Assembly: GCF_019059575.1 (NCBI RefSeq)
Contig: NW_024881984.1
Span: forward strand, 1-64,000
Direction of reading: 5' to 3'
Length of the DNA stretch: 64,000 nucleotides
Source: Amphibalanus amphitrite
Lineage: Eukaryota > Arthropoda > Thecostraca > Balanomorpha > Balanidae
Each line of letters begins with the position of its first letter. Position 1 is the first letter of the stretch. Position numbers and translations under genes: made by a program. The notes beneath the pieces are model-generated. The model was not told where the DNA came from and ran no database searches. It saw only the letters and a program-made list of their open reading frames with translations. Positions 32,612 through 64,000 of the stretch are shown piece by piece.

Positions 32612-35600
32612 ATGCCGTACGCCAATCAACCAACGCTGACCCTTACGGAGCTGACTGAAGAAAATGTGAAATTCTGTATTGAAGATACCGATCTCAGGTA
32701 TGTTATATCTATGCTTCAACTGACACATTTCAAGTTATTTTCTAAATGTTATGTTCGTGCATTGTTTGGATCTCGCTTTAACATCTCGGGGCAAGAGCAA
32801 AGCAAAGCAGTCCTACGCTTGACGTGAGGGTGGGAGCCGGGAGGGCTGTAAATACAAAAATTATTTGGGCTGCTTATATTGTTCCTCTGTTCTGTCGCAT
32901 TCCCACACTGGCAGCCCAGCATGACAACTTCATTGGTGTGGGCTGTGAGGGCGCTCGGATTGTGCGCAAGGCAGATTGACTGGTGATTTGCAGATTTTGG
33001 AATGCTGCAGTTGATTGGATGGTATTGTGCTGAGATTCCCTGTGCTGATTAAACATTTTTTTTAAGATAAAGTGATAAAGTTTACATGTGACAATGGTTT
33101 GAGAGCCAGGGAACAAAAAAGCTTTTAATTGAAATGTCAGTTTTTTGTTCATAAGTGTTTTTTTTTCACAAGTGAAAAGTTACCTATTTTGTGGTAATGG
33201 TTATGTATGCTATATGCACTTGTTGAGCACAGGCTGGTGTGGATTTCCAGCCTAGTTGATATAGGCTGCTCAGTCACCATGCTGATATGACTTGTCAGCT
33301 GTTGCCATGCTTTGCAGTGTGACTGCAACCTGCAGCAAAAGTACCTACTCAATCCGAGTTACTAGGATCGGGAGAGATTGAAATGAGGAGAGATAGTGAC
33401 AGGTGCCACATCAAACAAGTCTCGGGTCGGGTGACTTTTAGGGACTGATGTAAGCGTTTGCTTCCAGACATTTGACCTTGATTTTAGCAGTGCGAGGTAG
33501 CTGGAGCAAAGGGACATTCCAAAGATCCAAAAAAAGGGAAATTCCAAAAAATCCAGGTCTTTTTCCTTGGCCAGCCATCCTGGTATTGCTGCTCAAGCTG
33601 GAAGCTTTTTTAGCTTTTGTGGCTTTAGGCTGCTCTGATAGCTTCTCCCTGTGTTTTAATTAAAAACAGAGACCAATCTTTTGTCATTAAACAAGTAGAT
33701 TTGCTCTGGAACCATAGACCATTTTAACTCATTTCATCTCAGAAACAAAAACATTGTTTGTTCATTTATTTACATTGTTGGCCATTCAATTAATTGTTGT
33801 TTTCTTGTTTGGGGACTAAAAATATCACCTCAGTCATTAATTCCACTTTATTCCTCAAAATGACGAACACATCATATGCTTCACAAGCCATATTTGAGTA
33901 TCAAGGCTTATCCATAATTATCTATGTTTCCTAATGCCAATGGGTGGCTGCCCATCTTGCTTTCACACTTCATGACACACATACAATGTCAAGCTGTGTC
34001 AAACTCAGCCATGCTCTCTGTGCTCGCAACACATGGTAACTACCTCTGGGTGATGGTAACTGAAACAACTGCCTATACCCCACCAACAACAGTTGTGCAT
34101 CACATTTCTTTTCACGTGGCAACATCTATCACTTGAGCTTTTCCTCCCTACACTGTCCCAGAGCATTAAACCATGTATTCAGTATTTCTGAGACAGCCTC
34201 TTCATTGTGCCCTAATCACACAAGCTAAATCATTTTATGACTACTGCCACAATCACACATCTCGCACAGGTCATTTGCTGACGCGCGCTTGCGCCAGCCG
34301 CTCCCGCCTGCGTCTCGCGACACTCCTGCGTTTACGACGCAGGAAGTTGTCGAGCGACTTGATCGGGTTGCCGTAGGGGTCGTATCTGCACTCTGGGCAC
34401 GTGTACTGGTAGTGGCAGCACTCGTTGTTACGGTAGAGCGGCGTGCATCCGTTGGGTACCGGGGGGCATTCGGTGTGCTGCTCGATGAGCTCCAGGACGC
34501 CCGAGTTGCAGTGCATCTGGGTGCAGTGTCGCTTCTCGTCCTCCCACCACGTGGAGCCGTGCGGGTACTGCTGTCCGCCTACCTCACAGTCTGGGGGTGA
34601 GCGAAGACGTGCGTTAGAGGCGTCATGTGGAGAGAAGCTGGCGCTGGAACGGATGAGTAATGTGCGCCAAACTGACGGGAGTTGAAACATCCGATGGTCA
34701 AGCCTTTCCTTACAGGCAGGCAAGAAATGGAGGTAATCTGAGTCGAAGTTAAGCTAAAGGCATTGTTTCTGCGAGGAGAATGCATGACAGCGACGGCTGT
34801 TCAAGATTTGCATGCTTTTCAGACATTTGTGATCTATCCACGAATGAAACTGCCTGCTCCAAGAATTTCCATGGACTTTACCCATTCACTCAATGATTTA
34901 TCGTACGTTGTCGGAGAGCTCTCAAAAAGTGGGTACTCACGGGGGCATAGCCACTGTTTACAGCACGTGCCGGGCAGACGAGTGCCGGTGCACGGGCCGT
35001 CCGGCTGTGGCCGACACTCCCTGCCGTAGTCCTCGACCGTATTCACTCCGGCGCGCGTGCAGTTGAACTTTTTGCACGGGAAGGTGGTATCGTCCAGCCA
35101 CTCCTGGCCCTCGCCGTACGTGGTGTCGTTGTACTGGCATGTCACTGTGGGGAGACCAAGTTTCAGGGACGCTAAAGTGATAGGTGATAGGTGGATGGAT
35201 AGATCAAAACAAAGCTTCAACTAATTTCTGCGATGGGTGAGCAGCTATTTCATGTTTAATAGAAATGCGTGCTTGAGTGGGGAGCAATCATTCTGTAACC
35301 CATTTCAAACGTCATTTTCCGAGCAAAGTCTCCTCACGCGTTACTCGGCATCATGTCTGGGTCACAAAACACACCTATACCGTTCACGCTTCATCTGGCG
35401 CCGTCCGCCACTGACCGTGGACGCAGTCGTAGACGGGACAGCAGCGGTAGGGCACGGTACTGGCCGTGCAGCCTGCCGAGTCGGGCGGCGGCGGCGGGCA
35501 GCTGTCGGACACGTCGTTGGAGATCACCGTGCCGTTCAGGCAGGAGAGCAGCGTGCAGGGGCGCAGCGGGTCCAGCGGCCACGTGGTCGCGTGCTCATGC

Positions 35601-38600
35601 TGCTGACCGGCGTACGTACACGAGTCTGGTGGAGAGAGGTCGTGAAGTTTGGGTGAGACGGTGCTGGGGAGATCGCGGTTGTTGAAGTCAGTGTGGTTTC
35701 ATTGATAACTGAAGAACACTTAGCTCACCGAGCTGAAGTTTTGCATAATGTTATTGAAGATCGAATTAAGTCCACAATATTTATTCATTTACTATGAATG
35801 CCTCATTTGCGAGCTAGACATGCTGATATCTCCTTGCCACACCTGATCTAGGCGTTTGGCACAAATGTGTGCGGTTCATCTCACAACTCCTGCACACCAC
35901 CGTCCGGTTTACTGACCTGCTGGACAGTCGGGCACCGGACAGCACTGTCCGGGGATGTGGCGCGCGCTGCAGATGGTGGTCGGGAACGGTCGGCACACGG
36001 TGCGGTTCGTCTGTACTGACACACCCAGCACGCACACGTAGGAGGCGCACGGAGGATCCGTGGTCCACTCCTCGCCCGGCGCGTGTGCTACGCCCTCGAA
36101 GATGCACGGTACGCCTGGTGGAGGAAGGTGAGATGTAAATGTTGGCGGCTGGTAGAAATTATTTAGTTGACTCATTTTATTTTTGTTCTTTTTATCCTTT
36201 ACGGTCTTTGAAAGTTGCGAAATTCAGTTTGGGATAATGCTTCAAGTTGATGTGCTTACATTCCGGAGGTATTGTACGGCGCTTCAGTTGACATGAGTGA
36301 AAGGTCAGCAGCCACTAAGGATATCCTTCGAACTTCTTTACTTCTTTGCCTTTAAAATCTCCATCAGCTCACCACCTACGACCCCTTGCTTACCGCCTGG
36401 ACATGTGATCTCCGGGCAGCACCGGTTGGGTGGGAAGTGCTCCGTGCAGCCGGCAGGTGCTCGCGGACAGTCAGTGGCCACATCCAGCACGTGGATGGGA
36501 TACGGCGGGCTGCCGGACGCGCACACGTAGCAGGTCGTGGGTCTGATGGGGTCGTCCAGATACAGCTGGTTCACCGGGTGGGTGACGCCGCTTGGGTCCG
36601 TGCAACCTGCGGGTGACAGGTTTTTGGGTCCGTGCTGCTTTGGTGGAGAAAGAAGACAAGCGAGGCAACATGGCTATGGCAGAAGCTGGCCTTCGGTATA
36701 TTTAGCCGGTATCCTCATAGCTACCTGAATGATTGACGGGCGAAGCCCATAAGCTGCTTCGCCCCCGGAAGCTATTAGAAAATGCGTTAGACTGGTTCCT
36801 AATAATCACACCACAATCAAGAGCTGGCTGTGTGATATCAACTTCCTTCAGTATCAGCCCGTTCACTCACCGGGGTCGGGTTTCTGATCGGCGCACTGGT
36901 AGCGCGGGCAGCAGACACCGGGTACCTCGATACAGCTGGGGTCCTCCGGGGGCGAGGGGCACGGCTCTCGCACGCTAAAGACGACTCCGTCGGCACAGGC
37001 GTGGTTGGTGCAGCCGTCAGCGCTGGTCCAGAAAGACCCCGGAGGTCGCACTTGGCCGTACTCGTCCTCGCAAACTGGATAGAGGAGGCGCACGGACGTC
37101 AGCCTTTATCGGTCAATCTTTGTTTTGCTGTTTTGGTCTCCTTTTGCTCGTTTTATTGTTGAGCTCAGCGAAAACAAAATTACTAGTGTGTATAAGCCTG
37201 AATTCAAACCCCAAGGTATGCATTACCCGAAATCGTTCTTGTAATTCATTGAAAAAAAAATCCTTGCTGGCGTGTGATTTCTCATACGGACAATAGACGT
37301 GGACAAGAAAAAAGGTCGCTTTCCACCCGACGAAAGTAGGAAACGTTCTCCTAGCACCACTGGCGCTTTCTAAGCCCTTCCATTACTGTAAACACTTAAG
37401 TTACTCGTGTTTGCGATGCCATAGTAATTGTCCTAACACGGATTTCACTGACCTTCTGCTGTCGGCTGCGTCGTCGGCGTTACTGGGGACGTCCCCGCAG
37501 TTGTCACTGTCGTCGTGGAAGCCTGAGTAGTCGTCGTCGTCGCTGAAGTTGTTGTCGTTATGGTCGTCGTCGTTGTCGACAATGGGGTCGTCGTTGACGC
37601 TGTCGTGGACGTCGAAGAGCTGCAGTCGTAGACAGGGCAGCAGAGGCCCGGAACCGTAACAACCTGGCAGTCTGACGAGGCCGGCGGCTGGCACACGAGT
37701 TCAGTCTTGGTGACGACTCCGTAGTCGCAGCGGTGGCGGTAGTAGCAGTCGTTGGCCCGGAGCCAGGTCTGACCGTGCTGGTAATAACGGCCCTCGTCGA
37801 CACAGCCTGGCGGGTAGGATAGGGTGACTGTCACCAACGTTACAAGGAAGGGAGCTGGGCCGGATGAGAACGGTTTCAGCAATCTACAGCCCGTTCATAC
37901 TGGATTCGAGGTGGATCTAGCTCGCATCCTAGTGCTGGCGAACAGTGGCGACGTCTTTGGTCACCGTTATGGTAGCCTGCTACCTAGGCGATTCCCTTTA
38001 ACCAGATACGTACCTATTCGTAAGATTATGAGTGTGCTTACATCAGTATAACCCGCCCGCACAGGGTTCGGCGTATTACACGGAAGGCATGCGGATGTTC
38101 CCTAAGGTTCACGTGCCCTGGATGTTACTGAGGCGGTTCAGGCATCAGCTTTCAGGCCCTGAAAGGCGGCGGTTGGGAATGGAATGATCAATATCGCGTC
38201 CTAAATTGAAACCTTCTCGGTATCCGTGTCTTGCCGACACGGATGCTGAGTAGGTTAGGGACATCTGGACACCTACCGGTATCGCTGGAGGGGCACTTGT
38301 AGGTGGGACAACAGCGATCCGGCTCCTGGATGGCCACGCAGTCGGCCCGCGGCGGCTCCGAGCACTCCACGTCAATGACGAAGATGACGCCGTTCGAGCA
38401 GTGCCTCACGCAGCCGTCTGGTGTGGTCCAGTTGGAGTTGTGCGGCCGGGTGTTGCCGTTCTGATCCGTACACGCTGCCGAGAAGGTGGGATGACTGGTT
38501 GACGCAAACCTCTTGTCTTTTGGGTCTAGGGAACTATTATCTAGCATCCAACTTGCCTTCGCCCTCATTTTACGTGGCGAGGACATCGTCTCGCCTCACG

Positions 38601-41600
38601 TCTTGACAGACTGATTCATCAGTGCAAAGTGCGAAGGGAGGCATACTCTCTAGGAAGTTTTTTTTTTTAGATGAAAGACGCTAGCATGATGTGGAGATGC
38701 AAACTGTGGGCGTGTCCGCGGGATATTTTCGGACTCACCTTGGCCGGTGGGCGGTGTCGAGGTGCAGTTGTAGTCCGGACAGCACTGGCCGGGCACTGCT
38801 ATCGGCACACAGCCGGGCGGCGGAGTCGGCGGACAGTCCACGATGGCCACGTGGAGCGTTCCGTCTCTACAGCTGGTTACGATGCACCCGGTCTCATCGA
38901 AGACGTCGGTTCCGTGCGGCTGGACACTGCCGTCAGTTTCGACACAGTCTGGGGATGGATAGGCGGAGGTTCGTATGCGTTTTTTGTGGGTATTTGGCTT
39001 GGAGCCCATTTCTTGGCGTAGCTTCGGCTACAGTGTTTTGGTTTTGTCGATATTGCCGGTCGCCGGATTGCTACCAGGGATATTTCCCCTACAAGGAAAG
39101 CTGTCTTATAACAGGCGTGATGACTTTACGAATTACCCTTCATGAGATGTTATGCGTAGTCTTTCACTAGGCGAACTCTATCAGGCGCTATCTCACCTCT
39201 TTGGCCCGTAGACGTGCAGTTGTAGTCTGGACAGCACTGGCCAGGCACCGTTTGCGGCACACAGCCGGGCAAAAACAAGTGCACACATAGGGTGGTGAGG
39301 CCGAGCACTTGTCCGTTCTCACAGGTGAAGTGAAGACAGTTGTCCTCGCTGGTCCAGTGAGAGCCGTTCGGTCGCAGCACTCCGTCCACGTCTCGACACG
39401 CTGCGGAACGCGCGCAGTTAATCATCCCCAACTTCCACACGGCCTCTGTATTACTGAACTTCCACTTATCCCTACAAATCATAACTATACGTATTACATA
39501 CAGCTCACCAATGAGTCCTGTCCATTAACTTTCGACACACCCTTTGCACCCCCAACAAGCACACAAATCTCCGTTCTCTTATGGGTGCTGATTGGTTCCG
39601 CATCTGGGCGCCCAAGACCCTACTTTAACCCATGGTGACCATCCGTTCTCCGTGGTCAGCTCACCTCCAGCTGCCGGCGGAGTGTCGCAGATGTAGCGCG
39701 GACAGCACCGGCCCGGCTGGTTGAACTCTGAACACCCGCCGTAGGATGGCGGCGGCGGCACGCATACGAACGAGATGCCCCGCACCTGGCTGTCCTCGCA
39801 CATGTAGCGTGTGCAGTTGTTGGTGCTGGCCCAGTGAGAGCCGTCGGGTCGCAGCTGACCAGTGGCGTCCACGCAACCTGTCGAAGACACGCATGCGATG
39901 TCGGGGATGATAAAAGTATCCTGTACCACAGTACGGAGTTCGCGGAGGGTTTTGGAAAAGAGAATGACATGCGTAGGACAAGTTGTTCAAGATTTAACTG
40001 GAAGCTAGCTGAGGCTCATAACCCCAGAACATTCCAAAACACCTATGTCACCATAAGACCTACTGACTGCGCACATGTTCCTTGAAGTATCCCTTCGTGA
40101 TTGAAGTTCCTAACTTCCCAAACTGCCCATCCTCTGCGCCTGACCTTGGTTTGGTGTGTCGGGACACTCGTAGAAGGGGCAGCACTGGCCGGGCGTCCTC
40201 ACGGGGACACAGGCGGGGTCGGTGGGCGGCCGGGCGCAGTCGATGGTGGAGGCCGCCAGGAAGCCGCTCTGACAGTGGTAGGTGATGCAGCCGTCCTCGC
40301 TGACCATGGTGGTGTTGTGGGCCACCGGCCGGCCGTCCGGAGTCAGACAGCCTGAGGGCGGTAGACAATAGTTGGGAAGCTCTTGTGTCGCCTACTTCTT
40401 GATGTTGAAGAAACTGGACGATGTACTGAACAGTGAACATTATTGAACGAAGCGTTTGGCAATGCTGTCTGCAATTGTTTGAAATTGGTCTCGCTTTATA
40501 GATTGCATTTGCACATGCCTTTGGATGGAGGATTTTTATCCAAGACAAATTTTCTCTGCCTGCTTTGTGTGGACGTGGGGATGAGATAGATGGGGGGGGG
40601 GGCGCTCATACCAACCCTGTCGCTCTTGCACGCCTATGACTTCTAAAGTCCGGGTGTCCTAAAATCACAAATCAGCATCATCGTTCTTACTTCTTACCTT
40701 GTCCGTCGTCGCTGGTGGGACACTGGAAGTCGGGACAGCACTGTCCCGGAGTATACACGGGCAGACAGTCCGGTGTGAAGTCCGGTGGCTTCACGCAGCG
40801 GATGGACGTGCCGGTGATGGTGCCGTCGAAACAGCGGTAGACGGTGCAACTGTCGGCGCTTGTCCAGCTCGAGTTGTGCGGACGTACTGTGCCAGTTGAG
40901 TCCGTGCAGTCTGGGAGAGGAGATAGGCATTAGTTTTATTCAACTGATTTCGCATCGTATTGCTGTGTTTTGACATAAACTGGGAGGCATGCGAGCTCAA
41001 CTTCCGACCTACTGTGATTGGCAGAAGAAACTGAACATGGATCGCATACTATTGAACAGTAAAAACAAGGTCCGCTGAAAGGGCTTGAAATCGGTACCCT
41101 ATCATATGTTCTGGCTTGCTCTGTGGTAGGTGAAGTTTGTAAAGCAAGGATAGCGGACATTTCATCTCTTATTGACCTTGTTGCTCGAGCCATGCTAAAG
41201 ATGACCAGGAGCAGCGGCTGACCTTGGTTTGGTGTGTCGGGACACTCGTAGAAGGGGCAGCACTGGCCGGGAGTCCTCACGGGGACGCAGTCGGGGTCGG
41301 TGGGGGGCCGGGCGCAGTCGATGGTGGAGGCCGCCAGGAAGCCGCTCTGACAGTGGTAGGTGATGCAGCCGTCCTCGCTGACCATGGTGGTGTTGTGGGC
41401 CACCGGACGGCCGTCGGGAGTCAGACAGCCTGTAGATGGCAGAAGGGGTTGGCAAGGTGCCGAGGTTTGGCGTTGACGTCTTGATGCTGAAGAAACTGGC
41501 TCGCAAAGTGTTGAAACAATGTTTGCTAGCTGCTAGCTGCTATAAAGGTTTTATATGACGGTTTCATAGAAGAAAGCTCTTTACCTTATGGCCAGGAAGG

Positions 41601-44600
41601 TTTTGGCTCAGGGCAAAGGCAATGCTCATGATTAATTTCTCGTTCATGTTTGGATCGGAGGAAAGCTCTAGCGCTTACCTTGTCCGTCGCCGCTGGTGGG
41701 ACACTCGAAGTCTGGACAGCACTGTCCCGGAGTATACACGGGCAGACAGTCCGGTGTGAAGTCCGGAGGCACCACGCAGCGGATGGACGTGCCGGTGATG
41801 GTGCCGTTAAAACAGCGGTAGACGGTGCAGCTGTCGGCGCTTGTCCAGCTCGAGTTGTGCGGACGGACTGTGCCAGTCGAGTCCGTGCAGTCTAGGAATG
41901 GAGATAGACATTAGTTTTATTCAACTCATTTCGCATCGTATTGCTGTGTTTTGACATAAACTGGGAGGCATGCGAGCTCAACTTCCGACCTACTGTGATT
42001 GGCAGAAGAAACTGAACATGGATCGCATACTATTGAACGGTAAAAACAAGGTCCGCTGAAAGGGCTTGAAATCGGTACCCTATCATATGTTCTGGCTTGC
42101 TCTGTGGTAGGTGAAGGTTGAAAAGCAAGGATAGTGGACATTTCATCTCTTATTGAGCTTGTTGCTCGATCCATGCTAAATGTGACCAGGAGCAGCGGCT
42201 GACCTTGGTTTGGCGTGTCGGGACACTCGTAGAAGGGGCAGCACTGGCCGGGCGTCCTCACGGGGACGCAGTCGGGGTCGGTGGGTGGCCGGGCGCAGTC
42301 GATGGTGGAGGCCGCCAGGAAGCCGCTCTGACAGTGGTAGGTGATGCAGCCGTCCTCGCTGACCATGGTGGTGTTGTGGGCCACCGGCTGGCCGTCCGGA
42401 GTCAGACAGCCTGCGGACGGTAGAAGGGGGCTTGGAGGTTCTTGTTTGCGTCTTGATGTTGAAGATACTTGACAATGGACTGAATAGTGAACACCATTGA
42501 GCGAAGTGTTTGGCAATACTATGGGCAATTGTTTGAAATTGGTCTCGCTTCATGATTACATTTACACTTGATTTGAAAGATTGTAATCCAAGACGAAGGT
42601 TTCTCTACTGTATTGAATGAGATAGGTGGAAGAAGACGCTCATGCCAACCCTGTCCTCCTTGGACGCCGATGACCTCTGAAGTCCGGGCCGCGAGTTACC
42701 TAAATGTGGAACTACCCAGCGCCGAGCCGGCCGGATGACGTCACACCACGGCCAGTGCCGGCGCGGCGGCAGACTGGCCGAGATTCGCATGGTCTTAACT
42801 TGGCGAAGAGGCATCGGACGCCAAACTTCTGCTGCAGCTATTAATCACATTTCATGCGTTTCTTCCATGTGTATGAGCTATCAAGTCCTTCGAATACCTA
42901 ATGTGTAGGTGAGCGTACCTGCATTTAGCAGTGTGTGCTATGCTATGTGGATGGGCACATCCGACAGTCGACACACTGCGCAATGGATTCCGATATTGCT
43001 TGGCTGATTCTGGCTTTGTGTCTTCGAACGAACCATTGAAAGGGAGGACGTCATTTTTAAAGGTTGTTAGGTGCACTCAAACGTTTTAAGATAAGCAACT
43101 GCTGATTGAATTTTTGGCGAAGGTTGGTGGAACGCTCTGTTTACAAATGAGTATCTACCTACCTAGTACCTACCTGCAGTGGCAAATAACTGGGTCGCGG
43201 TCAGTTAGGCATGATTCACGAAGTCCCTTATCTTTTATTAGACTTATTAAGCCCAATATGCAACATTTGCGTCTTTTCGCGTTGTATCGGGTAGCAAATG
43301 AGAAAATCTGCTTCTTCTCCACAGCCCTCAATTCAAGAAACCGTCCTTTTCCTTATCACATTATTCCAGAACATAATTTTCAAACATGGGTATCTTCCCC
43401 ACAAAAAAAAACTGAAGCAGTTTCCTTCGGCTCCAATGCGCCGCTCGCCCAGGGAGACGGAAGTTTTATATTCTCGGCGGTCCAGTCTGCATTCTGCAGC
43501 ACACTCAAACTTGGCGGACCCCCAGCGCACGACTGAACGATTCGTATTGTTGTGAGTGACTGTGACAATTCACTGGTGGTTTCGGAATAATTAACAGGCG
43601 GCGCAGCCCAGTGCCTCTTACAATGATTTACAGTGGCGAATGCACTATTGCAGAGAAGAAATGGATTGAGCAGATGCCCAACCTCGCTGTATTATCAACT
43701 AAACATTAGGTACGCTTTACATTTTAATCAGGCAATCATGTAAACAAACGACTTGCGAGTTGCGACCCTTCCGCCTTACATAACTCGGCAGAATGCCCCT
43801 GAGTCGGCTAAACTACACTGCATCTCTTCAAACCTTAAGTATTTTACAATTTACCACTCAGCTATGCAACAGGCTTATAATTCACTGCTCAAGTCTCAAC
43901 CCCTTTTCCCTATCATCTTTTTGGCACCGTCAATCGCCATCTGCGCTGCCCACTGTCCAGCAAATAATCCGGCCGTCTCCAGTTCTCTGGCAGGGGCTTC
44001 CAAACTCAAGCGAACTCGCCGAAGTTTCGCCATTCAATGCGCAGGATCTGTACAATTGAGTTTGAGAGCCTCTGGGTTGGCTCGGCGCGCCTGCGCCGCG
44101 CCGTTGGTCCGGCCAAGTACGCGAGTGACGTCATGCTATAAGCGTCATCCCCGACCAAAGTCACCAATCAGAGCCCTAGAATCGACTTGTAGTTCCACAC
44201 TTAGGTAACTCGCGTCCGGGCCTCCTAAAATCAACACCATCCTACTCACCTTGTCCTTCGTCGCTGGTGGGACACTGGAAGTCGGGACAGCACTGTCCCA
44301 GAGTATACACGGGCAGACAGTCCGGTGTGAAGTGCGGAGGCACCACGCAGCGGATGGACGTGCCGGTGATGGTGCCGTTAAAACAGCGGTAGACGGTGCA
44401 GCTGTCGGCGCTTGTCCAGCTCGAGTTGTGCGGACGGACTGTGCCAGTCGAGTCCGTACAGTCTGAGAATGAAAGACAACATCAGTTTTATTCTTTTCGT
44501 TTCACGTGGCATTGCGAAGCCTAACCTTGACGCGTTAAGTTGACTGGACTGACATTCGACCAAACCTTTGCGCACTACGCTGATGGACACGTCAACATGT

Positions 44601-47600
44601 GTCGCAGCGCTTTCTGCTATGTACATAGTCCAAAGACGAGATCTTACGAACGGCATGTTTTCAGTATTGCCGGGTGTCGGCAGATGAAACAGCCTTATCA
44701 CTGTATCCTCGTCCCCGATCCGTCATCCGCTCTCCTCACCTTGTGGGGCGTCGTCGTTGGGGCAGACGAAAGTCGGGCAGCACTGTCCCGGAGCGTTAAC
44801 GGGCACGCAGAGGTAGCTGGCCGGCTCTGGACACTTGATGGTGGTGCTGGAGATGGCGCCGTCGCTGCACGTGTAGATGGTGCAGCCGTCGGCACTGCTC
44901 CAGCTAGAGTTGTGGGCGCGCAGGGCGCCGGATGGGTCCGTACAGTCTGTGAAAGCAGATGTGGTGAATGTGTCAGGTTGTGTTTCCCGAGGTCATTTCG
45001 TGTGGTAAGCAACGTTCCAGAAGGATGAAGGGCGGATTTCTGGGATCGAAGTATGCCGCCAAGCGTCGATCTTAGTGATTAAAAAGCAATTATAGTGGTT
45101 AAGCATTGCTTAGTCACTCGCCAACAGGTCTTGTCCCATGGTAACGAAATGGAGACAAGGGAAGATCGAATGCAAGGACGCTTGTCTCAACTTACCTCGA
45201 GTTCCGTAATGTGGGCAGTCGTAGACGGGGCAGCACTGGCCCGGAATGTTCACAGACACACAGTCGGGTGAGGGGCTCGCGATGACGTCGCAAACAACGT
45301 TACTGCTGCTGATGACGCCGTCGAAGCACTTGTAGATGGTACAGCCGTCGGCGCTCGTCCAGTTCGAGTTGTGTGGGCGGATCTGGCCGTTCGGATCCTC
45401 GCAGTCTGCCGGATAAGGAGGATGTTACCGCAATAGCACAAGGTCACACTGGCGCTAAGGATCGGTTATCAACCATCGTGATACCGTGACATCGTGAGGT
45501 CGCGTGACTCGTCGAAGCTGCCATAGCTAGTCATTTCAAGTGTTCTCCACACTTGCAGCAAGTCCTAAACTCCACAGTCTGCAAGGGACCGCACGGCCTT
45601 CTCTTACCTGCTGGGCCGGAGCAGTTGAAGGAGGGACAGCACACTCCGGGAGTGAACACGGGCAGGCAGTTGCCTGGTGGGTAGGGTTCGATGCATTCCT
45701 CGAAGGTCACCGACAGCTCTCCGTCGAAGCAAGTGTAGATGGTGCAGCCATCCGCACTGATGCGACTCGAGTTGTGCACCAGTGGGACGCCGTTGGGGTC
45801 CACGCAGTCTGCCGGCATCGGTGACGTTGTGGGTGAGGATGAGGCAACTAATCCTTCGCTTGCCACATCACCAGAGCTCGGACCGTCATCCAACACCATG
45901 GGCAAACTCATTCAAGATACATAGACAGCCTCCAATTCGTCTATCGTCACAGTATAAGGATTTGTCATCTCCATTTTCTAGGGTTAGCGTTGCGAGGAAA
46001 ATCATGACGTTCCCTCGTCAACAAGTCAATTAAATCGTTTCACTAACGATCTCGTCAACTGCTTTCTACATGCGAAATCCTCGTTCGCTCTCTTTTACTG
46101 ACCTTGTCCAGGCTCCGGACAAAAGAAGGTTGGACAGCAGCTGTTTGGCTGCTCGACGGGGACACAGCCGGGGCGCGGAGGCAGCGGGCACTCCACGACG
46201 ATCTCTCCGAGTGTCCCGTTCGTGCAGCTGATCACGAGACACCTGTTCTCGTCGATTACGTGGGAACCGTGCGGCAGGACACTGCCGTCCGGTCTCACAC
46301 AGTCTGAGAAAAGACAGGCGGAGGGTTGGCATGTTTCGAGGACATTGCTTGGTTTGGAGTGGTTAAACGAAAGTTGATTGATGGGTATAGTATTCTTTCT
46401 TCGAAAGTGCTGGACATACTGTCATACTGTCATACTGTCATTGGTACATATACTGTTTGTGGAACACTATGTACCAAGAATGTAAGACTTGGTTTCTATG
46501 AATCGTGCGCCAAAAACTCTTTCGCGTCAACTCTCTCGAGCGAACTCCATCATGGAAATCAGCTCCAGAGCGAAGCTCACCTCTGGGACCGATGGAGGTG
46601 CAGTTGTAGTCTGGACAGCACTGGCCAGGTACCGTTTGCGGCACACAGCCGGGCAAAAACACGTGCACACAAAGTTCGGTGAGGCCGAGCACTTGTCCGC
46701 TGGCACAGGTGAACTGAAGACAGTTGTCCTCGCTGGTCCAGTGAGAGCCGTTCGGTCGCAGCACTCCGTTCTCGTCTCGACATGCTGCGGAACGCACAAA
46801 GAAGAAAGTCATGTAGCTATTGAGCCACCGAGGCTTTATGTTCCCTCTGAAAAGCTACTAACAAATAAATCGCTTTGGTCGAGGGAAGGTGTGACCAGTG
46901 GCAGCGAAGCATGCCGATTCATCAACTATATTCCAAGGAAACGGGGCGTTTTGCATGAGTAGAAGTCCTGGGCGGAGCTGAGCAACCCACTGCCGTCCAC
47001 AACTTCAGTACCTGCTTAGGTATTTGCCAAGTGACGTCCCCTGCTGGCCTACCTCCATCGGGCGGCACCACGGCACACCGGTACAGCTGGCAGCAGAAGC
47101 CGGGCACAGTCTCTGGCACGCAGGCGGAGCCGGGCGGTGGAGGCAGGCACACGGCCGACACGCCCAGCACCACGCCCTGGTGGCACGTGTAGCGCGTGCA
47201 GTTGTTGGCTGTCGCCCAGTGGTCGCCGTGCTGGCGGAGCACGCCGTCCTCGTCTACACAGTCTGTAGGTGGTGTAGGGAGGTTTAGTGAGTGCGATGAG
47301 GAACGTGATGATAGACATTGGTTTCGCGAAAATGACTCATCATCTGACTAGGTTATCTGATTCCAACTCGCGAGACTCTCTTCGTGGAATCCGCCTACGT
47401 TTTTATGCTTTGTGATAAATCATTGACAGCTCAAAGTTTCATTCTGCAGAGAAACATTGACGTTGGCCATGCTTTATTCATTTGGGAACGTAATCATCAA
47501 GGGAGCTTTAAACTGATTGTTTTCGTCCTCAAACGAACACAACTCCCCACTCAGCTCCGTTTTTACAGACCTTGATTGTCGCTGCCGGCGTCGTTTCCTG

Positions 47601-50600
47601 CTCCTCCCCCGTCACCACCGTCGTCGCCTCCATCGTCGCCACCTCCGTCGCCACCGCCGTCAATATCGCAGCGGTACGAGGGGCAGCACTGTCCCGGTGG
47701 CGGGGGCACCTCGTAACAGATCCCTCCGAGAGGTAGCGGCTCACAGGTGACCGTGCCCGTGGCGATCATACCCGACATGCAGTCGTAGTGGGTACAGCCA
47801 TTCGGTGAGCTCCAGTGTGCGCCGTCCGGCCGGACCACCCCCGATGAGTCGGTGCAGCCTGCCCGGAGAAGGGGGACGGGAAGCTGTGATTAGGCCCCAA
47901 AACTACGGCCCTGTAACTGACATGTGAAACGGCTTGTAGGTGGGCCGCGAGATTCTCGCGAGAAATGTGAAAAATGAAATTACGAGGAAGACGAGACATG
48001 CATGGAAATTGAGTGGTGTGAGTTTCCGATTCCGGAAGAGCAGACGGAGCGTATTTGATTTCTTCTCATACCTGTTCTGTACAGTATTGTGAGGGCTGAG
48101 GCTATGCCAAGATGCCGTTTGTCTTATTCCCGATGTGAAAATCCCCCTGCACTCACGGCCGTCGGTTGGACAGGCGTAGAAGGGACAGCAGAGCTGCGGC
48201 GCGTCGATGCGCTGGCACGTGGGGTCGGACGGAGGCGGCGGACAGCTGACGGGGAACTTCTCGATGATCCCGGCGCTACACTGGAGGATGATGCACTCCT
48301 GGGCACCCGCCCACACGGCGCCGTCTTCGTAAATTTCGCCTGTCTCGGTTACACAGTCTGGAAGAGAGGGGAGGTGATCGTAGAGTCAGTTGTCCGGTGG
48401 GGCACGATGTGATTTTCACGGGTTGGATGTTTGAAAAACGACGGGTGTTGTGTAGTGGTTTTCTCACTTTCTTAGCATTCATAACGGTGCTAATGTATAT
48501 TGTATAGCAAGCTATGTTACTCCCAGAATAGTATTCTTATAATGTCACATCTATCGCAATTCAAGTGCTGTAAAGTGCAAGCGGAAAATAACATGACGAG
48601 GGCTCCGACATTTACAGTCCTCACTCATTAGTGTCTCATCAGAATCAAGATGACTAAGGAAACCTCAATGTTGTCGCATCTCACCGACTCACCGTTCAGT
48701 GTGGGCGGACAGACGAACTCGGGGCAGCAGTGGCCGGACGCGGGCACGGGCACGCAGTTGGCGTGCGGCGCCACCTCCAGGCACACGATGGGCACCTCTG
48801 TGACCTTGCCATTGGCGCAGCTGTAGCCCTTGCAGCCGTCCTCACTGGTCCACTGAGTGCCATGAGAGTGCTTCTGACCGTCGGCGTCCAGACACGGCGC
48901 AAAGAACCGCGGTGACTCCGGCGGCGGCGGTCCCGATCCCCAGTAGGAGTGTGTCGTCGTCTGGTTACAGAAGTACTCGAAGCAGCAGTGGCCTGGTTTC
49001 CGCGAGGCGACACAGTCAAAGCCCTCCGGCTGCCCCTTGCAGACGTGTGAGATGTTCAGGTCGACGCTGATGCGGCCGTCGTCGCAGCTGAGCCAGGCGC
49101 ACGGATGGTCGGTGTTGTCCTGCCACCGCTCTCCGTGCTTCCGAGCCGTGCCCGCCTCGTCGATACAGCCGCCCGGCGGCGGACGTACCGAGCGGGGGTC
49201 TGTCGGACGCGCTGCCGACAGGGAGGGAGAGACAGTGAGACCGTGCTGCGAGTGTGGGATTTCATGAAGTGAGGTTGAGCTCGAAGGTGACAGTTAATGA
49301 GAAAAGTACTATTCTGTTAGAAGTTGATTCGATGAAAAATTATGCTATTTGATAGGCATCGAGACGAGCCTTTTGTTGGGGTCGTGGAAGGCTGTACTCT
49401 GGGTGTTTTTAGAAGACGTTAATCACAAAAATGCTTTTAGAAATGGTAGATGTTTCAATGTACTTGAGGCACAGTTTCAGACAAGGGTTCCTAAATTTTC
49501 CCCTGATATTATTCCTTCTCTCGACTCTAATGAAGGTGACCCGTCCTTAGACGACTTGTCTTGATCTTTGCTAGCCTGGATAATATCTCTTTCGCTGCTA
49601 TTAGAACACCAAAAAGTTTGCACCACCCTCTCCTTCTGGGAGAGGGTGGTGGCAAAGTGCTCCTCGCGTGAACTATCCTGGGGACTCGCTAGTTTCGACT
49701 CCACATGTCACTCACCTTCCCTGTCAGAGCAGCAGAGCTTATGACAGTCGCAGCAGGCGTCCGCCACAGTCGGGTGCAGTTGGCAGTTGTCAGACGAACA
49801 GAACTCATCCTTGAGCGCGTCGCAGTCCACACGACTCCCTGCGTATGTCTGTCTTACAGCTGTCACCAGCAGCAGCAGGAGCGCTCCTCCGACCGAGCTC
49901 AGTGCGGGCCCCATGACTGGCTCTGCCACCGAACCCGGCGGTCGACTGGCACCCGGCGGTCATCTGCCGACCGCCGCCCGGCCGCCCCCGCCCCCCGCCG
50001 GGGTTCGGCGGCCGCCCCAGGGGCTCACGGTCCGAGACATAGCGCTGGGTCAGCGGGGAGTGGCTTCCGGTGACCGGTCACATGACGATGAGGCGGAGAG
50101 GTGTCTGGAGCCACTGTGGACAAAGTCGTGACACCGGCAGAGGGGCGGGCACATGAGGACGGTGACCTTCCTGTTTTGGCGGGCGCCACTGACGACTTCC
50201 TGTGTGGTGATGATTCTTGGTGTCATGTGATCTGAACTGGACCGGATGAATTGGAAACTCTGATTAGCTCGGGGTAACATTTATTTTAAACGCTGCGTTC
50301 ATAGACCGAAAGATCGCTCTTTTTGTTCTTTATTCTGGCAGGCTTCTATCTCTGTTTTTTTTATCATGGACCGCACCGAACTCTAGTCTCTAACGAACCC
50401 AATCAACTCTCATAATTCACCGTCTTTTCCCCTCAGCTCACCTTCCAAACTCACTCCCATTCCCATTTCCCACTCATTCAACTAACTACTCCCACCCCTC
50501 TCGGTGTTTCAGCGTGGCCAACAGTATCCGCCGCATTATGATCGCCGAGGTGCCCACTCTGGCGATCGACTGGGTGCAGCTGGAGGCGAATAGCACCGTG

Positions 50601-53600
50601 CTGTGCGACGAGTTTCTGGCGCACCGGATCGGAATGATCCCGCTCACCTCGGACGAGGTGGTCGACAACATGCAGTACTCCAGGGTCAGTGGAGGAGTGT
50701 GTGTGTGTGGGGGGGGGGGGTGAGCTGTGGTTGTGTTTGAGGTTTGAATAGTGACTTGTGAGCTGAAGTTAAGCTTTAGAGTGAGGACTTGTAATTTTGC
50801 CTCGGTTTATGGAAGGGGGAAGGAAGGTTATGTCCTTAGATGGGATATGTCATAGCACAGATAACAGTAGTACTACTGTTATCTGTGGTCATAGCATAGA
50901 CCACTATATACCTGGACTCTGCACTGATATTGCCGACTGCCATTAGGGCCCTGCTGGGAAATTCGATGTAGCACGCGGAATTTGTGTTGATGCTCTATGA
51001 AGCCCATTTAAATGAAAGGAATTGCTTAAATGTGATGTATATTTTGATAAATGCTTAATTTATAGCATGATTTTCGACACGATGAATAAATAAAAGCACT
51101 TAGAGGCAGGTATATAGTGGTCTATGGTCATAGACTAATCCACAGTAGTCTATGGATATGTATTCCAGTCCATTGAATCGGTAGATTTGTGGCCCGTGTT
51201 CCAATTCTGATTGTTGTCACGATGGTGGAGAAACGTTTTAGAAACCCTAGTAATGTATCCTACGTAGTCTAGCGCAATATGTCCATTCCTCATTAACTAG
51301 CTGTGCTATTTTTGACAGTGTCAGACATGTCTGTCAGGACTTTTATATAAACTAAATCGTCGTAGTTACTTGCTGACTAGCTCAATGTCTGCAAACGCCT
51401 TGCACATGTTTCATAACTTGATAACGCATTCTAATTTCAGATGCTTATTTAATTGAATTAGCCGTGCCATCATGACATAAGCGAGGAACCAAGCCTTCAT
51501 TCGATAATTGCTGTATCGCTTACCCACAACTCCTCCCCCCTCCGATAACCAGTCTCACTGCGTGTGGCCTGTTGTATCTAACCCACCCTCTCTACCCCCT
51601 CGGCAGGACTGCACGTGCCCGGACTTTTGTCCGCAGTGCAGCGTGGAATTCACGCTGGACGTCAAGTGTAACGAGGGTCAGACGATGCACGTGACCACGG
51701 CTGATCTCAAGTCGTCCGATAGTCGCGTCATACCAGCCACTTCGCGACGGGACGAGGACGGCGCCGATTACGGAGACTCGGATGGTAAGAAGTGCGCCGA
51801 GAGGTGTACCCGGCACGGGAAAGTAAATATGCGAAGATAGGAGGATTTGAGGTTAGCTTGTTTGGTGGCATAGTTTTGGAAGTGTCGGAAGGCTTGCAAA
51901 GCCTTCGAGATGCAGATTCCGGTGTCAGCATTTTGAGTTGTTTTGGTATTGTTTGTTTCTACTCCTTTGTCCAATACTTCCAGCGGTTAAGTGTCGTTTT
52001 ATCCAGTCATCAGTCAGCCTTTCAAGTGTGCAGAGTCATCCAATCTTTCTTTCTATCTTTGTTTGTTTAGTTGTTTGTTTTTTTCTTTTTTTTTCTTTCT
52101 CTCATCCTCTTTTTATTCACACTCCCTGTCCCCCCGCAGAGATTGAGATTGTAAAGCTGCGGAAGGGCCAGGAGCTGAAACTGCGGGCGTACGCTCGGAA
52201 GGGGTTCGGCAAGGAGCACGCCAAGTGGAACCCCACCAGCGGCGTGGCATTCGAGTACGACCCGGACAACGCGCTGCGCCACACGCTGCTACCCAAACCG
52301 GAGGAGTGGCCCAAGTCCGAGTACACTGAGATCGACGAAAGCCTCCGTGAGTACGAGAGTTTCTACAAAGCTACAAATAACGTTTGCTATTACTACACCT
52401 TTTTGCGTTGTTCGATGGCCAATCAGCAAAACCCATTCGTCCGATCAGCACATAGGTGGCGCCAGTGAGAGGCATTCCGGCAAAACCTTCAGCATATGGG
52501 CAAAACGGAATGCTGATCCCACTCCACAGTTCGTCAGTTGGTATTACCTTCGCTATTCGCCATAACTGATTGAGTTCCGGCAAAACCTTTGACGATTTGG
52601 ATAAATGCTTCGTCATTCGTTAATATCCCTTCGTCGTTCTCCAAAACATCCCCATGCTAATTTCGGCATTCCTCATAACATTTCGTCAACACTAAAAACA
52701 GATCGCCCCTTTACAGAGAAGTATAAATATAACCACGTTTATACAGTGCAGTGCGAGGCATAGGTGGCGAAACTCGTAGACCATTGATCCACATAAAAAT
52801 CGGTAGCGTTCATGAGCGCCATAGGTACAATGTAGATGGACGTAGCTGACATGTTATCGGCTGATTGAAAAATGGACAGGCAACAGAGCAACAGGCTGGA
52901 TAAGTTAATCCCGCCTCAAACACCAAGGAACAGGCAACAGGCTGGATAAGTCAGCCCCGCCCCAAACACCAAGGTGTCCGGCCGGCAGGGCCCGGCTCGC
53001 CATCTGTCAGCCATTCCCTCGCGAGTCCGACCGGCGCGGCCGCCCGAGGCGTTGTCCCATGACATCGCACGGGCAGTGACGCGATAATGACGGCCGACTT
53101 CGTAGTTTGTATCGAAGCGCTTAGGAGTCCGACGCTCGAGAATGCTCTACACTCTACGCTCTACGCTCTACATGCCTACTCGGTATGGCGCCGGCAGTCT
53201 CCTCGTAGCTATCGTATAACTGCCTTTTTCGGAATCCAATGGTTAATTGGTTGCAAATTGCGCTGGAACTGTCAAAAGCCTCATCCCTGAATGCGTGATT
53301 AACGTTAAACATTGAATATGGCTAGATAAGCACTACATCATTGATATTTTGATCATTGACGAAAGTTTTAAATTAACAGTCATTGTTTACGCACAGTACC
53401 GATTAATTTTGCACATCGACTAACCATTTTGTGAAATGTCGAAGCATTATGACAATCTGACAAAGTGTTTTGCCTATGACGAACATTGTGCTCAATGGCG
53501 AAGAGTTATGCAGAATGGTTAAATGGAGTCCAGCCTGTTTTGCCGACCGTCAAACAGTGATGCACATCGCCGATGGGTTATTCTGAATGACGCTTGTCCA

Positions 53601-56600: not shown

Positions 56601-58507
56601 TAGCTGGCTTGGCACCAGAAAACAGCATCGTCATCGGTATTTGATAAGCAGCGCACATGATATCCAACGGTGACCCAAAACAGCAACATTTTTTAGTTTG
56701 ACCTGACCTGGAAGGTCAATGACTGACCTGAGAAGGTTAAACTGGGTATCATTGGATTCGTCTCTTCCCAAAGAATCTTTTTGGTCTTTACTGCTAAGCT
56801 CTATCTCCAACAGGAACGAAATGGCGCGGGGGGGTGGCAACCACCCCCCCCCCCCCATGTGCGTTCTAGGATGGGAAAATGGCATGTGCGGGCGAGGGTT
56901 AATAGTTAATAGGAGCGATGAGGGGGAGTGGGGCGTGGGAAGAGGGTCGTGGTAGGGCTATCCGAGTGGCCGATGGGAACTGGAAAGGGAATGTTAGCTT
57001 ACCTGTTATACAAATCTGATGTTCTTCTGAATGCGTGGTGGTCAGACGTGGTGGTCGTTTTCCCATTACTTGCCGAAGATAATGATTCGGACAGGTTATG
57101 GAAGGATGTTCAGTAGTAGTATAAAATGCGCTCATATCTATGAAATGATGCTAGAAATATAATGCTGAATGCAAGAGACTGCGCCGAAGCACAACGCACT
57201 AGCGCAACTGTTCTGCGTTCGGTCACAGTCCAGACATTTTTTAAATTTTAAACTAAATGACGTCAAGTGAGCTGCAGGAAACGGGACATTGTGATGAAAC
57301 CAAAGACGTCTTGAGAAATATGAGCAGATATCACATCCGTGGTTTAAATAACAAATCTATATGTACTAGAGAGATGTCATCAGCTGGAGACTCTGTCTAC
57401 TGCGCCCCTGTGCCGCCCGGTATCTGTCGATCACATCCGACAGGCGACACCGGCTGCCCGGCTGTCGGTTGAACTACTGTCTGCTGAGCCAGCCCCGGTC
57501 CCGTGGCGGCGGCACATGCTGACCAACCGGTGCTGACTGTTCGGGGGATGTTGGGTTTGTGCTGACAGTGGTATGTCAGAGAGGCGGTACAGGGCGCGCC
57601 GGTCCGGCCAAAGACGGAAGTCTGATGGTAGTCTCAGCAGTTGGGTGATAGTCGCCCCCGGAGCTGGGGTATCGGGAGCATCTCGGAAGGAGGGGTGACG
57701 TACCGGGGAAATGAGGTGTAGCTCGGGTAGGGTGACGGTGAAAGGGCGAGAGTTTGCTGACGAGGTGCCGGACGGGCCGAGTGGTGTCTGGGAGTGGTGC
57801 CGTCAAATATCTGAGACCGAAACTCAGAGCTAGGCATCTCTCCCCTAGGCATCTCTGGTGGGAGAGATGCATCTCTTTGCCACATTTACAGGAATTCTCG
57901 ATAAAATCACCGCGGATAAAATTAGACTAGCTTATTTAATTTATTAAGTTGGTCGCTGACATTTGCTAAGCTAGTCTCTTATCTCAACATAAGACGCACA
58001 ATGCACATACTTCACTCCTATTTGCGTCAAACAACGATCCCTTCTTCGCCTGCGCTATTGGGCTCACTTTTTCTGTTGATTTTTTTTCTCTGTGTAACTA
58101 ATCCATCTGTATTTCCCGTATAAAACATCTGCTCTTGTTAGATTGCATTGCATTTCATCAATTACTTTATTGATTGTCTTCTTTACCAGTTAATTTTTCC
58201 AATTATCCACATTTTCCTTTCTTATATTAATTGCATTATTTTATTGTTGGCGTCGTGAGCTAGCCAGTTTCCCCTGGACCGACTTACACTGTCTTAACCC
58301 TTTCCTGTTCCTCCCGCAGACGAAGCGCCATACCAGGACGGCGCCAGCGCCAACAAGTTCTACTTCAACGTCGAGAGCACCAACGCCCTGAAGCCGGAGA
58401 ACATTGTGCTGACCGGTCTGTCACAGCTGAAGAAGAAGCTGAGCGACCTGCAGACGCAGCTCACGCAGGAGATGAACCAGAACACTGACGCACTGACCAT
58501 TCACTGA
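32612..58507 (+). CDS. POLR2C: DNA-directed RNA polymerase II subunit RPB3, complete, 5 exons
   Basis: Exons: 32612-32697, 50513-50684, 51607-51784, 52140-52346, 58320-58507. Phases agree at every junction and the total is 276 codons, against 275 in the human protein. The start [19 protein letters not shown] and [13 protein letters not shown] are the diagnostic N-terminal dimerisation (alpha-like) motif. The zinc-binding loop [10 protein letters not shown] is intact. It continues [40 protein letters not shown] and the C-terminal helix [15 protein letters not shown]3 pairs with RPB11 to nucleate polymerase II assembly in the nucleus. Intron 1 is 17.8 kb and contains a whole VWC-repeat gene on the other strand. 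Intron 4 is 6 kb and contains transposons and a CAD exon. The next-frame ATG-like TTG at 32594 was rejected in favour of the conserved ATG. Confidence 0.97.
33847..33852 (-). terminator. Candidate poly(A) signal of the 27-exon VWC gene
   Basis: Minus-strand AATAAA about 420 bases past the stop codon at 34271, inside RPB3 intron 1. Another lies at 33765-33770. Chosen on position only. Confidence 0.3.
34271..49914 (-). CDS. Secreted multi-VWC-domain protein, complete, 27 exons, nested in RPB3 intron 1
   Basis: Minus-strand exons in order: 49914-49716, 49211-48693, 48357-48157, 47858-47571, 47262-47053, 46784-46581, 46303-46103, 45808-45608, 45405-45196, 44946-44740, 44462-44250, 42410-42204, 41891-41679, 41429-41223, 40910-40698, 40351-40145, 39877-39665, 39400-39197, 38948-38739, 38474-38277, 37806-37453, 37074-36871, 36606-36394, 36114-35917, 35625-35416, 35144-34941, 34590-34271. 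All junctions are GT-AG and phase 1; the total is 6228 bases, 2075 residues. Exon 1 encodes a signal peptide (hydrophobic run [10 protein letters not shown]) and a Cys-rich head. Exon 2 encodes two VWC domains and each later exon one, with the CC-P-x-(Y/F)-x-C ending. Exon 4 adds a Gly/Asp linker and exon 21 a Thr-rich linker. The tail is highly basic ([14 protein letters not shown]). VWC/CR domains often bind TGF-beta/BMP ligands or matrix. The function here is unknown; the extracellular location is inferred. Confidence 0.9.
37453..37620 (-). other. Thr-rich, mucin-like linker inside exon 21 of the VWC gene
   Basis: After its VWC domain (ending CCPVYDC) the exon continues in frame for about 55 residues that are mostly Thr with Ser, Ala and Pro. 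It is a candidate O-glycosylated spacer. The DNA is a degenerate GTCGT trinucleotide-type repeat on the plus strand, which suggests slippage expansion. Confidence 0.85.
40145..44462 (-). repeat. Three tandem copies of a two-exon (A-B) VWC unit
   Basis: A exons (213 bp): 44462-44250, 41891-41679, 40910-40698. B exons (207 bp): 42410-42204, 41429-41223, 40351-40145. A exons are nearly identical to each other, as are B exons. The B-to-A introns 41892-42203 and 40911-41222 are both exactly 312 bp and almost the same base for base. The period between the two younger units is 981 bp. Confidence 0.95.
42691..44214. mobile_element. 1.5-kb inverted-repeat transposon in the A1-B1 intron of the VWC gene
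   Basis: Ends GCGAGTTACCTAAATGTGG and the inverted counterpart at the right end match over about 26 bases with one difference. They are flanked by an 8-bp duplication TCCGGGCC (42683-42690, 44215-44222; one base of uncertainty, since a C may belong to the element). The paralogous intron near 40640-40665 shows the empty site, AAGTCCGGGTGTCCTAAAAT. The element has no transposase frame. The 8-bp duplication suggests hAT or a P-like superfamily. Confidence 0.85.
49617..49656. repeat. 13-bp perfect stem hairpin in VWC gene intron 1
   Basis: CACCACCCTCTCC and GGAGAGGGTGGTG with a 5-base loop (49621-49651). TTTGC/GCAAA lengthen the stem past a one-base bulge. It lies 60 bases inside the intron after the signal-peptide exon. 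Confidence 0.7.
50856..50887. repeat. 32-bp perfect palindrome in RPB3 intron 2
   Basis: CACAGATAACAGTAGT is followed directly by its exact reverse complement with no loop. Confidence 0.9.
50895..51126. mobile_element. 232-bp MITE-like element in RPB3 intron 2
   Basis: Perfect 20-bp inverted arms CATAGACCACTATATACCTG (50895-50914) and their reverse complement (51107-51126). The flanks carry more CTATGG/CATAG motifs, so the true ends and target duplication are uncertain. Confidence 0.65.
52393..53656. mobile_element. TA-flanked inverted-repeat element in RPB3 intron 4
   Basis: Ends CTACACCTTTTTGCGTTGTT... match their inverted copy over more than 30 bases (52393-52424 and 53625-53656), flanked by TA on both sides as in Tc1/mariner-type insertions. 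The interior has degenerate repeats of GGCAAAACCTT and CATTCGTCAT-like motifs but no transposase. It starts 46 bases after the exon 4 donor. Confidence 0.8.
54505..54750 (-). CDS. CAD: Single orphan exon of CAD (CPSase large subunit, MGS-like domain)
   Basis: An 82-codon minus-strand exon with a good acceptor (TTGTCTCTCAG) and donor (GAG|GTGAGG), phase 0 at both ends. The translation contains [20 protein letters not shown], then [12 protein letters not shown] and [11 protein letters not shown], the conserved methylglyoxal-synthase-like allosteric domain at the end of the CPSase part of CAD, the trifunctional first enzyme of pyrimidine synthesis. No other CAD exon was found on either side in this window, although the neighbouring minus-strand frames were scanned. 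It could be one exon of a CAD gene with giant introns, a duplicated relic, or an assembly join. The open frame has no lesions. Confidence 0.8.
55990..56902. mobile_element. Non-autonomous piggyBac-like element, family 1, copy 2 (inverted)
   Basis: TTAA at 55990-55993 and 56899-56902, with the same CCCTCGCCCGCACATG inverted ends as the copy at 3088-4054. The two are similar along their length in opposite orientation. It lacks the 54-bp duplication of copy 1. It sits in a small TTAATAGGAGCG repeat in RPB3 intron 4. Confidence 0.88.
57834..57870. repeat. 11-bp stem hairpin in RPB3 intron 4
   Basis: GCATCTCTCCC and GGGAGAGATGC with a 15-base loop that itself repeats CTAGGCATCTCT. Confidence 0.6.
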
Positions 58508-63600: not shown

Positions 63601-63863
63601 AAGGTCTCGCGCTCCCGGGCCTTGTTAGAGTGAAGAGCAATTGGATTGAAACTCACGTTCCTCGCAGTCCCACTTGGGACAGCAGAGTCCCTCCATGTGC
63701 CAGGGCGTACAGCTGGGGTCGGGCGACGGCTCACAGTAGCGCGACTCGTCCTCCTCAAACACTACCTGGCCGCCCTCACAGCGGAGTCGACGGCACGGCC
63801 GCGTCTGGTCGTCGTACAGCGATTCACCCTCCTGGTACTCGGTGCCGTCGTGCAGGCACAGGG
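60700..63863 (-). CDS. Second multi-VWC-domain protein, 3' part, 5 exons, partial
   Basis: Minus-strand exons 63863-63657, 63362-63156, 62563-62351, 61977-61765 and 60965-60700 (stop TGA at 60702-60700). All internal exons are phase 1-1 and encode one VWC domain each. The gene continues right of the window. The exon at 62563 (CQYGTDPVQVYSEGQRWVDD...) is most like exon 26 of the nested gene. The terminal exon, with ECCHYKYTC and a short tail, matches that gene's last exon (ECCHYQYTC), so the two genes are paralogues with the same 3' architecture. It lacks the long basic tail of the nested gene. Probably secreted; function unknown. Confidence 0.85.
61080..61790 (-). repeat. 31-bp minisatellite containing a complete 5' splice site
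   Basis: About 16 copies of the end of exon 61977-61765 (codes DCCPVYHC) plus its donor CC|GTGAGT are strung through the following intron. Six to seven copies at about 61310-61510 are nearly perfect with a 31-bp period (plus strand CGGCAGTGGTAGACGGGACA then GCAGTAACTCA). The others are spaced by unique DNA. Confidence 0.92.
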
Positions 63864-64000
63864 CTGTATGTGGGAGAGTTGGGAGCCAGGTCAGAAGGGT
63901 CAGATGGGAGGAAGGGTCAAAGGGAGGGAAGTGTTGGCGGCAGACGGCAGGAAGGCTGGAGTGACGAAGTAGAAAATGGTGAAAGACAGAAGCAAAAGGA

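What the first reader, a model, noticed from the sequence alone, without database searches (positions are those of the whole stretch)
34271..49914. A complete 27-exon VWC-repeat gene nested antisense inside one intron of RPB3
The start codon with signal peptide, every internal exon and the stop codon all fall between RPB3 exons 1 and 2, on the opposite strand. A gene for a roughly 2075-residue secreted protein is thus embedded in a constitutively transcribed polymerase subunit gene, with only about 600 bp between its ATG and RPB3 exon 2. Convergent transcription across the whole gene is expected.
Basis: partly seen in the sequence, partly recalled or inferred. Interest (0 to 1): 0.8.

Follow-up and report, generated by a model that had tools for sequence, protein, structure and literature searches.

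The report
Big secreted-protein gene inside RPB3 intron
In this animal genome a complete 27-exon gene for a large, probably secreted, cysteine-rich repeat protein lies backwards inside one intron of the gene for an RNA polymerase II subunit, a clear example of a known kind of gene-within-a-gene.

Summary
On the minus strand 27 exons (ATG 49914, TGA 34271) join into one 2075-residue frame; all 26 introns are GT-AG and phase 1, and 27 eight-cysteine VWC-like modules result. All exons lie inside the 17,815-nt intron 1 of RPB3, whose five plus-strand exons give a full 276-residue RPB3. RPB3 exon 1 has no other match in the 807.6-Mb assembly, so a misplaced exon 1 is unlikely. New here: the nested gene (VWC1) has a paralogue (VWC2, about 60.7-66.4 kb, minus strand) just past RPB3. 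VWC1 modules 1 and 23-27 group with VWC2 modules; modules 2-22 group apart, as an own expansion, with recent duplications in exons 11-16. A multi-copy 1.5-kb inverted-repeat transposon sits in VWC1 intron 11. Opposite-strand nesting of coding genes is common in animals (567 pairs in C. elegans, PMC12274878). Transcription, convergence and conservation could not be tested. New member of a known kind; modest interest.

The parts
32612..32697 (+). RPB3 exon 1 (coding part, MPYANQ...TDL|S)
   Evidence: no other match to it in the assembly
32698..50512 (+). RPB3 intron 1, 17,815 nt, GT-AG, phase 2, holds all coding exons of VWC1
50513..50684 (+). RPB3 exon 2
51607..51784 (+). RPB3 exon 3
52140..52346 (+). 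RPB3 exon 4
58320..58507 (+). RPB3 exon 5 with stop codon
34271..49914 (-). VWC1: nested gene, 27 coding exons, 2075 aa, 27 VWC-like modules
49716..49914 (-). VWC1 exon 1: hydrophobic N-terminus (signal-peptide-like) and an 8-Cys segment without a Pfam match
48693..49211 (-). VWC1 exon 2, two VWC-like modules; module 1 groups with VWC2 modules
40145..44462 (-). VWC1 exons 11-16: three copies of a two-exon unit; exons 94-98% identical, stretches that include intron 82-95%; spacing 981, 1078 and (with the transposon) 2571 nt
42690..44214 (.). 1,525-bp inverted-repeat transposon in VWC1 intron 11, flanked by a 7-bp direct repeat TCCGGGC; longest stop-free frame 154 codons; near-identical copies on many contigs
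34271..34590 (-). VWC1 exon 27: last VWC-like module, basic tail [22 protein letters not shown], stop
33765..33852 (-). two AATAAA matches downstream of the VWC1 stop, inside RPB3 intron 1
49915..50512 (-). 598-bp interval between the VWC1 ATG and RPB3 exon 2; most simply holds the VWC1 5'UTR and promoter (inferred); GC 75% at 49.9-50.1 kb
60703..64000 (-). VWC2: paralogue on the same strand; continues past the window end to about 66.4 kb of contig C487, 9 modules in all; exon borders not fixed

Best explanation
A genuine, intact opposite-strand nested gene. VWC1 encodes a probably secreted, disulfide-rich protein of 27 VWC-like modules with a basic C-terminal tail, and all its coding exons lie in intron 1 of the single-copy RPB3 gene. 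It most likely has its own promoter, most simply in the 598 bp between its ATG and RPB3 exon 2, and its own poly(A) site in the intron; the RPB3 pre-mRNA carries VWC1 as antisense intron sequence and splices it out. VWC1 and VWC2 arose by duplication of one VWC gene; VWC1 then grew by duplicating phase-1 module exons, the latest steps adding about 1 kb each to the RPB3 intron. Shown from sequence: gene structures, single copy in the assembly, shared ends of VWC1 and VWC2, module expansion, transposon insertion after a module duplication. Inferred: transcription, promoter, secretion, and whether nesting came before or after the expansion. The protein most likely works as an extracellular binding or matrix protein; that is inference from the VWC type (BMP or matrix binding by VWC modules is recalled).
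Confidence: 0.9

Rival explanations
1. Assembly error: RPB3 exon 1 and exons 2-5 were joined around a VWC gene that lies elsewhere in the animal.
For: Several VWC loci are present as pairs of equal-scoring matches on different contigs (e.g. C170/C1027), while this locus is present once, so there is no independent copy. Repeats of about 1 kb and a multi-copy transposon lie inside.
Against: No other RPB3 exon 1 was found in the assembly. The contig is 473,370 bases long; the VWC1 coding ends lie about 1.6 kb and 0.6 kb from the flanking RPB3 exons, and the related gene VWC2 lies just past RPB3 on the same contig and strand.
Confidence: 0.05
2. VWC1 is a decayed or untranscribed gene remnant, so the nesting has no effect.
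For: No expression data were available.
Against: 2075 codons without an internal stop, 26 of 26 canonical introns, and omega below 0.5 in six of seven comparisons of duplicated exons.
Confidence: 0.04
3. VWC1 and VWC2 modules are parts of one transcription unit that runs antisense across all of RPB3.
For: Same strand, related modules, about 11 kb apart.
Against: VWC1 has its own ATG and hydrophobic N-terminal exon, and VWC2 has an own hydrophobic start (MIGRGWPVALLVVAALLGAADA) and an own C-terminal frame that ends at about 60.7 kb.
Confidence: 0.04

Closest known systems
Opposite nested protein-coding gene pairs of animals (e.g. ceh-10 in polq-1, C. elegans; PMC12274878, passages read)
   Same: A complete coding gene in one intron of a host gene on the other strand; 567 such pairs, about 5% of coding genes, in C. 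elegans; hundreds in fly and human according to that paper.
   Different: Here the host is a general RNA polymerase II subunit gene and the nested gene has 27 exons. PMC3192792 (passages) cites about 63% of human nested genes as opposite-strand and about 41% as single-exon, so multi-exon nesting is not rare; whether 27 exons is unusual was not measured.
TipE gene cluster nested in an intron of CG18675 in insects (PMC3240667, passages read)
   Same: Members of one gene family nested in an intron of an unrelated conserved gene of an arthropod.
   Different: There the coding sequences of the family cluster (and one unrelated gene) are nested together; here one paralogue (VWC1) is inside RPB3 and the other (VWC2) just outside.
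VWC-repeat extracellular proteins: chordin, crossveinless-2, kielin/chordin-like (architectures recalled; crossveinless-2 papers seen in a search listing)
   Different: 27 modules, and no VWD or chordin domain among Pfam matches at E 0.01 or better in the 1795 of 2075 residues searched.

Membership tests
Opposite-strand nested gene pair | All coding exons of one gene lie inside one intron of the other, on the other strand | tested here: met
Opposite-strand nested gene pair | Untranslated ends and promoter of the nested gene also lie inside that intron | tested here: inconclusive
   AATAAA matches at 33765 and 33847 and a GC-rich 598-bp upstream interval; no transcript ends available
Opposite-strand nested gene pair | Both genes are transcribed as separate units | not testable with these tools
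   no RNA data
RPB3 (POLR2C) | Full-length RPB3-type subunit with insert and dimerisation domains | tested here: met
   (PF01000 79.4 bits, PF01193 66.5 bits, both over cut-off)
VWC-domain proteins | VWC domain over the Pfam cut-off | tested here: met
   31.3 and 41.0 bits against 27.6 for two protein parts; single exon 13 alone only 17.6 bits
VWC-domain proteins | VWC fold | tested here: inconclusive
Kielin/crossveinless-2 type (VWC repeats plus VWD) | C-terminal VWD domain (recalled as defining) | tested here: not met
   no VWD match at E 0.01 or better; the C-terminal part was in the query, exons 13-16 (280 aa) were not
Kielin/crossveinless-2/chordin type | Binds BMP-type ligands | not testable with these tools
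   needs a binding assay

The most novel reading that the evidence does not exclude
The nested gene steers its host: VWC1 activity, through a promoter less than 0.6 kb from RPB3 exon 2 or through polymerase collision, sets the amount or 5' end of RPB3 mRNA in VWC1-expressing cells, and each module added to the VWC array changes the length of RPB3 intron 1, so a repeat expansion in a secreted protein tunes a polymerase subunit.
Probability: 0.07. Interest if true: 0.65.

Novelty: new member of a known kind. Interest (0 to 1): 0.3.

Why it matters
It is a clean natural case of a long repeat gene, with recent module gain, inside a single-copy gene that every cell needs. Because the paralogue VWC2 lies outside the host on the same contig, the two genes could be used to ask what nesting costs: whether the nested copy is expressed only where RPB3 tolerates it, and whether module gain in the nested gene is limited by the host intron.

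Tried and rejected
Assembly artefact: looked for a second RPB3 exon 1 or a second VWC1 copy in the assembly and found none (one search used 1,567 bases of VWC1 only). This lowers the idea but leaves no independent haplotype to confirm the join. One VWC unit across RPB3: rejected because both VWC genes have own starts and ends. Relics of duplicated RPB3 exons downstream of VWC2, which a tandem duplication of [VWC + RPB3 exons 2-5] would predict: tblastn over 104 kb of C487 gave the five known exons and three chance-level matches (E 1.0, 2.4, 7.5), so how the two VWC genes came to flank RPB3 exons 2-5 stays open. VWC modules elsewhere on 1-104 kb of C487: none by the strict pattern or by tblastn at E 0.001. 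Modules of other VWC genes for the tree: my pattern found none in L001, L003, L005, L007 and L008, so the tree holds only VWC1 and VWC2. PDB by sequence for four modules: one match, E 0.34, taken as chance. A bacterial promoter scan of the upstream interval says nothing for an animal and is not used. Species: not identified; animal origin is inferred from RPB3 scores (human 448 bits, fungi and plants about 191-212). Barnacle papers were looked at (listing; passages) because of genome size and divergent contig pairs, but nothing ties the assembly to a species. The nesting in related species could not be checked because no other animal genomes are held. Whether a gene nested in RPB3/POLR2C has been printed: one search (3 papers, listing only), none on this subject by title and abstract. 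Nested genes with exon duplication: one search (12 of 18 listed, listing only), none describing this by title and abstract.

Full report
WHAT IS THERE. I rebuilt both gene models from the raw sequence. On the minus strand, 27 exons run from ATG at 49914 to TGA at 34271. Joined, they give 6228 nt and 2075 residues with a single, terminal stop. All 26 introns begin with GT and end with AG and all are phase 1, which fits a gene built from duplicated modules. Each of exons 3-27 carries one eight-cysteine module and exon 2 carries two: 27 matches to one cysteine spacing pattern, 225 cysteines in all. Exon 1 begins with a hydrophobic stretch followed by a cysteine-rich segment without a Pfam match. 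The protein ends in a very basic tail with RRKR/RRRR motifs.

THE HOST. On the plus strand, exons 32612-32697, 50513-50684, 51607-51784, 52140-52346 and 58320-58507 join to a 276-residue protein that aligns with human RPB3 over residues 1-275 (E 8.2e-134) and passes two Pfam models of RPB3-type subunits. Intron 1 is 17,815 nt; VWC1 from ATG to stop takes 15,644 nt of it. The other RPB3 introns are 922, 355 and 5,973 nt. In the 807.6-Mb, 2644-contig assembly the RPB3 query has six matches: its five exons on C487 and one place on C6 at 35% identity. No second exon 1 was found, so a wrong exon 1 is unlikely. A VWC1 stretch of 1,567 bases is likewise found only on C487, with three partial matches to its own repeats. 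Because both are single copy, while several other VWC loci appear as equal-scoring pairs on different contigs, there is no second haplotype to confirm the join.

HOW IT GREW. A second gene, VWC2, lies on the same strand from about 60.7 to 66.4 kb of the contig; its 3' end is 2.2 kb past the RPB3 stop, and it has an own hydrophobic start and nine modules (its exon borders were not fixed). In a tree of 36 modules, VWC1 modules 2-22 form one group and modules 1 and 23-27 fall with the nine VWC2 modules (the split has support 98/91). The pairs V1_26/V2_7 (99/94) and V1_27/V2_9 (98/93) are firm, V1_25/V2_6 has 89/88, and V1_23/V2_8 joins two long branches; 18 of 33 inner branches are unresolved. 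By plain alignment score the best VWC1 partner lies in {1, 23-27} for 8 of 9 VWC2 modules; the exception is V2_2. I read this as two paralogues that share their ends, with the middle of VWC1 an own expansion. Modules of other VWC genes of the genome could not be put in the tree, and the search for further paralogues did not complete, so a closer relative elsewhere is not excluded. The latest rounds are visible as DNA: exons 11-16 are three copies of a two-exon unit, stretches with intron being 82-95% identical and exons 94-98%. Seven comparisons of duplicated exons give omega 0.06-0.76, six of them below 0.5, on 5 to 19 changes each. A 1,525-bp inverted-repeat element with a 7-bp flanking repeat sits in intron 11; the paralogous intron 15 lacks it, so it most likely came after that duplication. 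The same element has near-full-length copies of 96-99% identity on many contigs (69 matching stretches listed, 40 of 328 candidates scored).

HOW IT LIKELY WORKS. VWC1 most simply uses a promoter in the 598 bp before RPB3 exon 2, where GC reaches 75%, and a poly(A) site at one of two AATAAA matches at 33.8 kb; both are inference. RPB3 transcripts would carry VWC1 as antisense intron and remove it. Convergent transcription follows only if both run in one cell. PMC12274878 (passages) reports 567 opposite-nested coding pairs in C. elegans, less co-expression than for non-nested neighbours, and one host that starts internally at its nested gene. PMC3192792 (passages) reports intron retention, exonization and cryptic polyadenylation in human hosts of nested genes; its protein-coding cases were tandemly arranged (same strand).

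COMPARISON AND VERDICT. Opposite-strand nesting is a common arrangement, and family clusters can be nested too (TipE genes, PMC3240667, passages). What is particular here is the combination: a 27-exon array with recent module gain inside a single-copy polymerase subunit gene, with a paralogue just outside. I rate it a new member of a known kind. Transcription, conservation and species could not be tested.

Noticed in passing
54505-54750 (minus), within 53706-55761: RPB3 intron 4 holds one open exon like the MGS domain of CAD (Pfam MGS 23.8 bits, just under the cut-off of 24.1; the name CAD is recalled). Two other copies exist (C606, C1207) with identical protein; DNA 241 of 246 identical to each, all differences at third codon positions, and about 2 kb of sequence is shared at 89-90%. 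Looks like a recent copy of a CAD segment.
   Followed up: partly
61080-61790: A minisatellite (31-bp unit and variants) in VWC2 resembles the end of a VWC exon plus its splice donor, repeated many times beside the real exon end.
   Followed up: no
42690-44214: Multi-copy 1.5-kb inverted-repeat transposon with 96-99% identical copies across the assembly, apparently recently active and without a long frame.
   Followed up: partly
60703-66440 of contig C487 (window part 60703-64000): VWC2, a second VWC-repeat gene near VWC1 on the same strand, with four modules in one open frame (64251-65090).
   Followed up: partly
L001-L006 (C170/C1027, C74/C1317): Several VWC family matches in the assembly come in pairs with equal scores on different contigs, so both haplotypes may be kept for some loci but not for this one.
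   Followed up: no
L017/L018, about 92.3 and 99.6 kb of C487: Two identical translated stretches 7.3 kb apart hint at a larger direct repeat downstream of VWC2.
   Followed up: no
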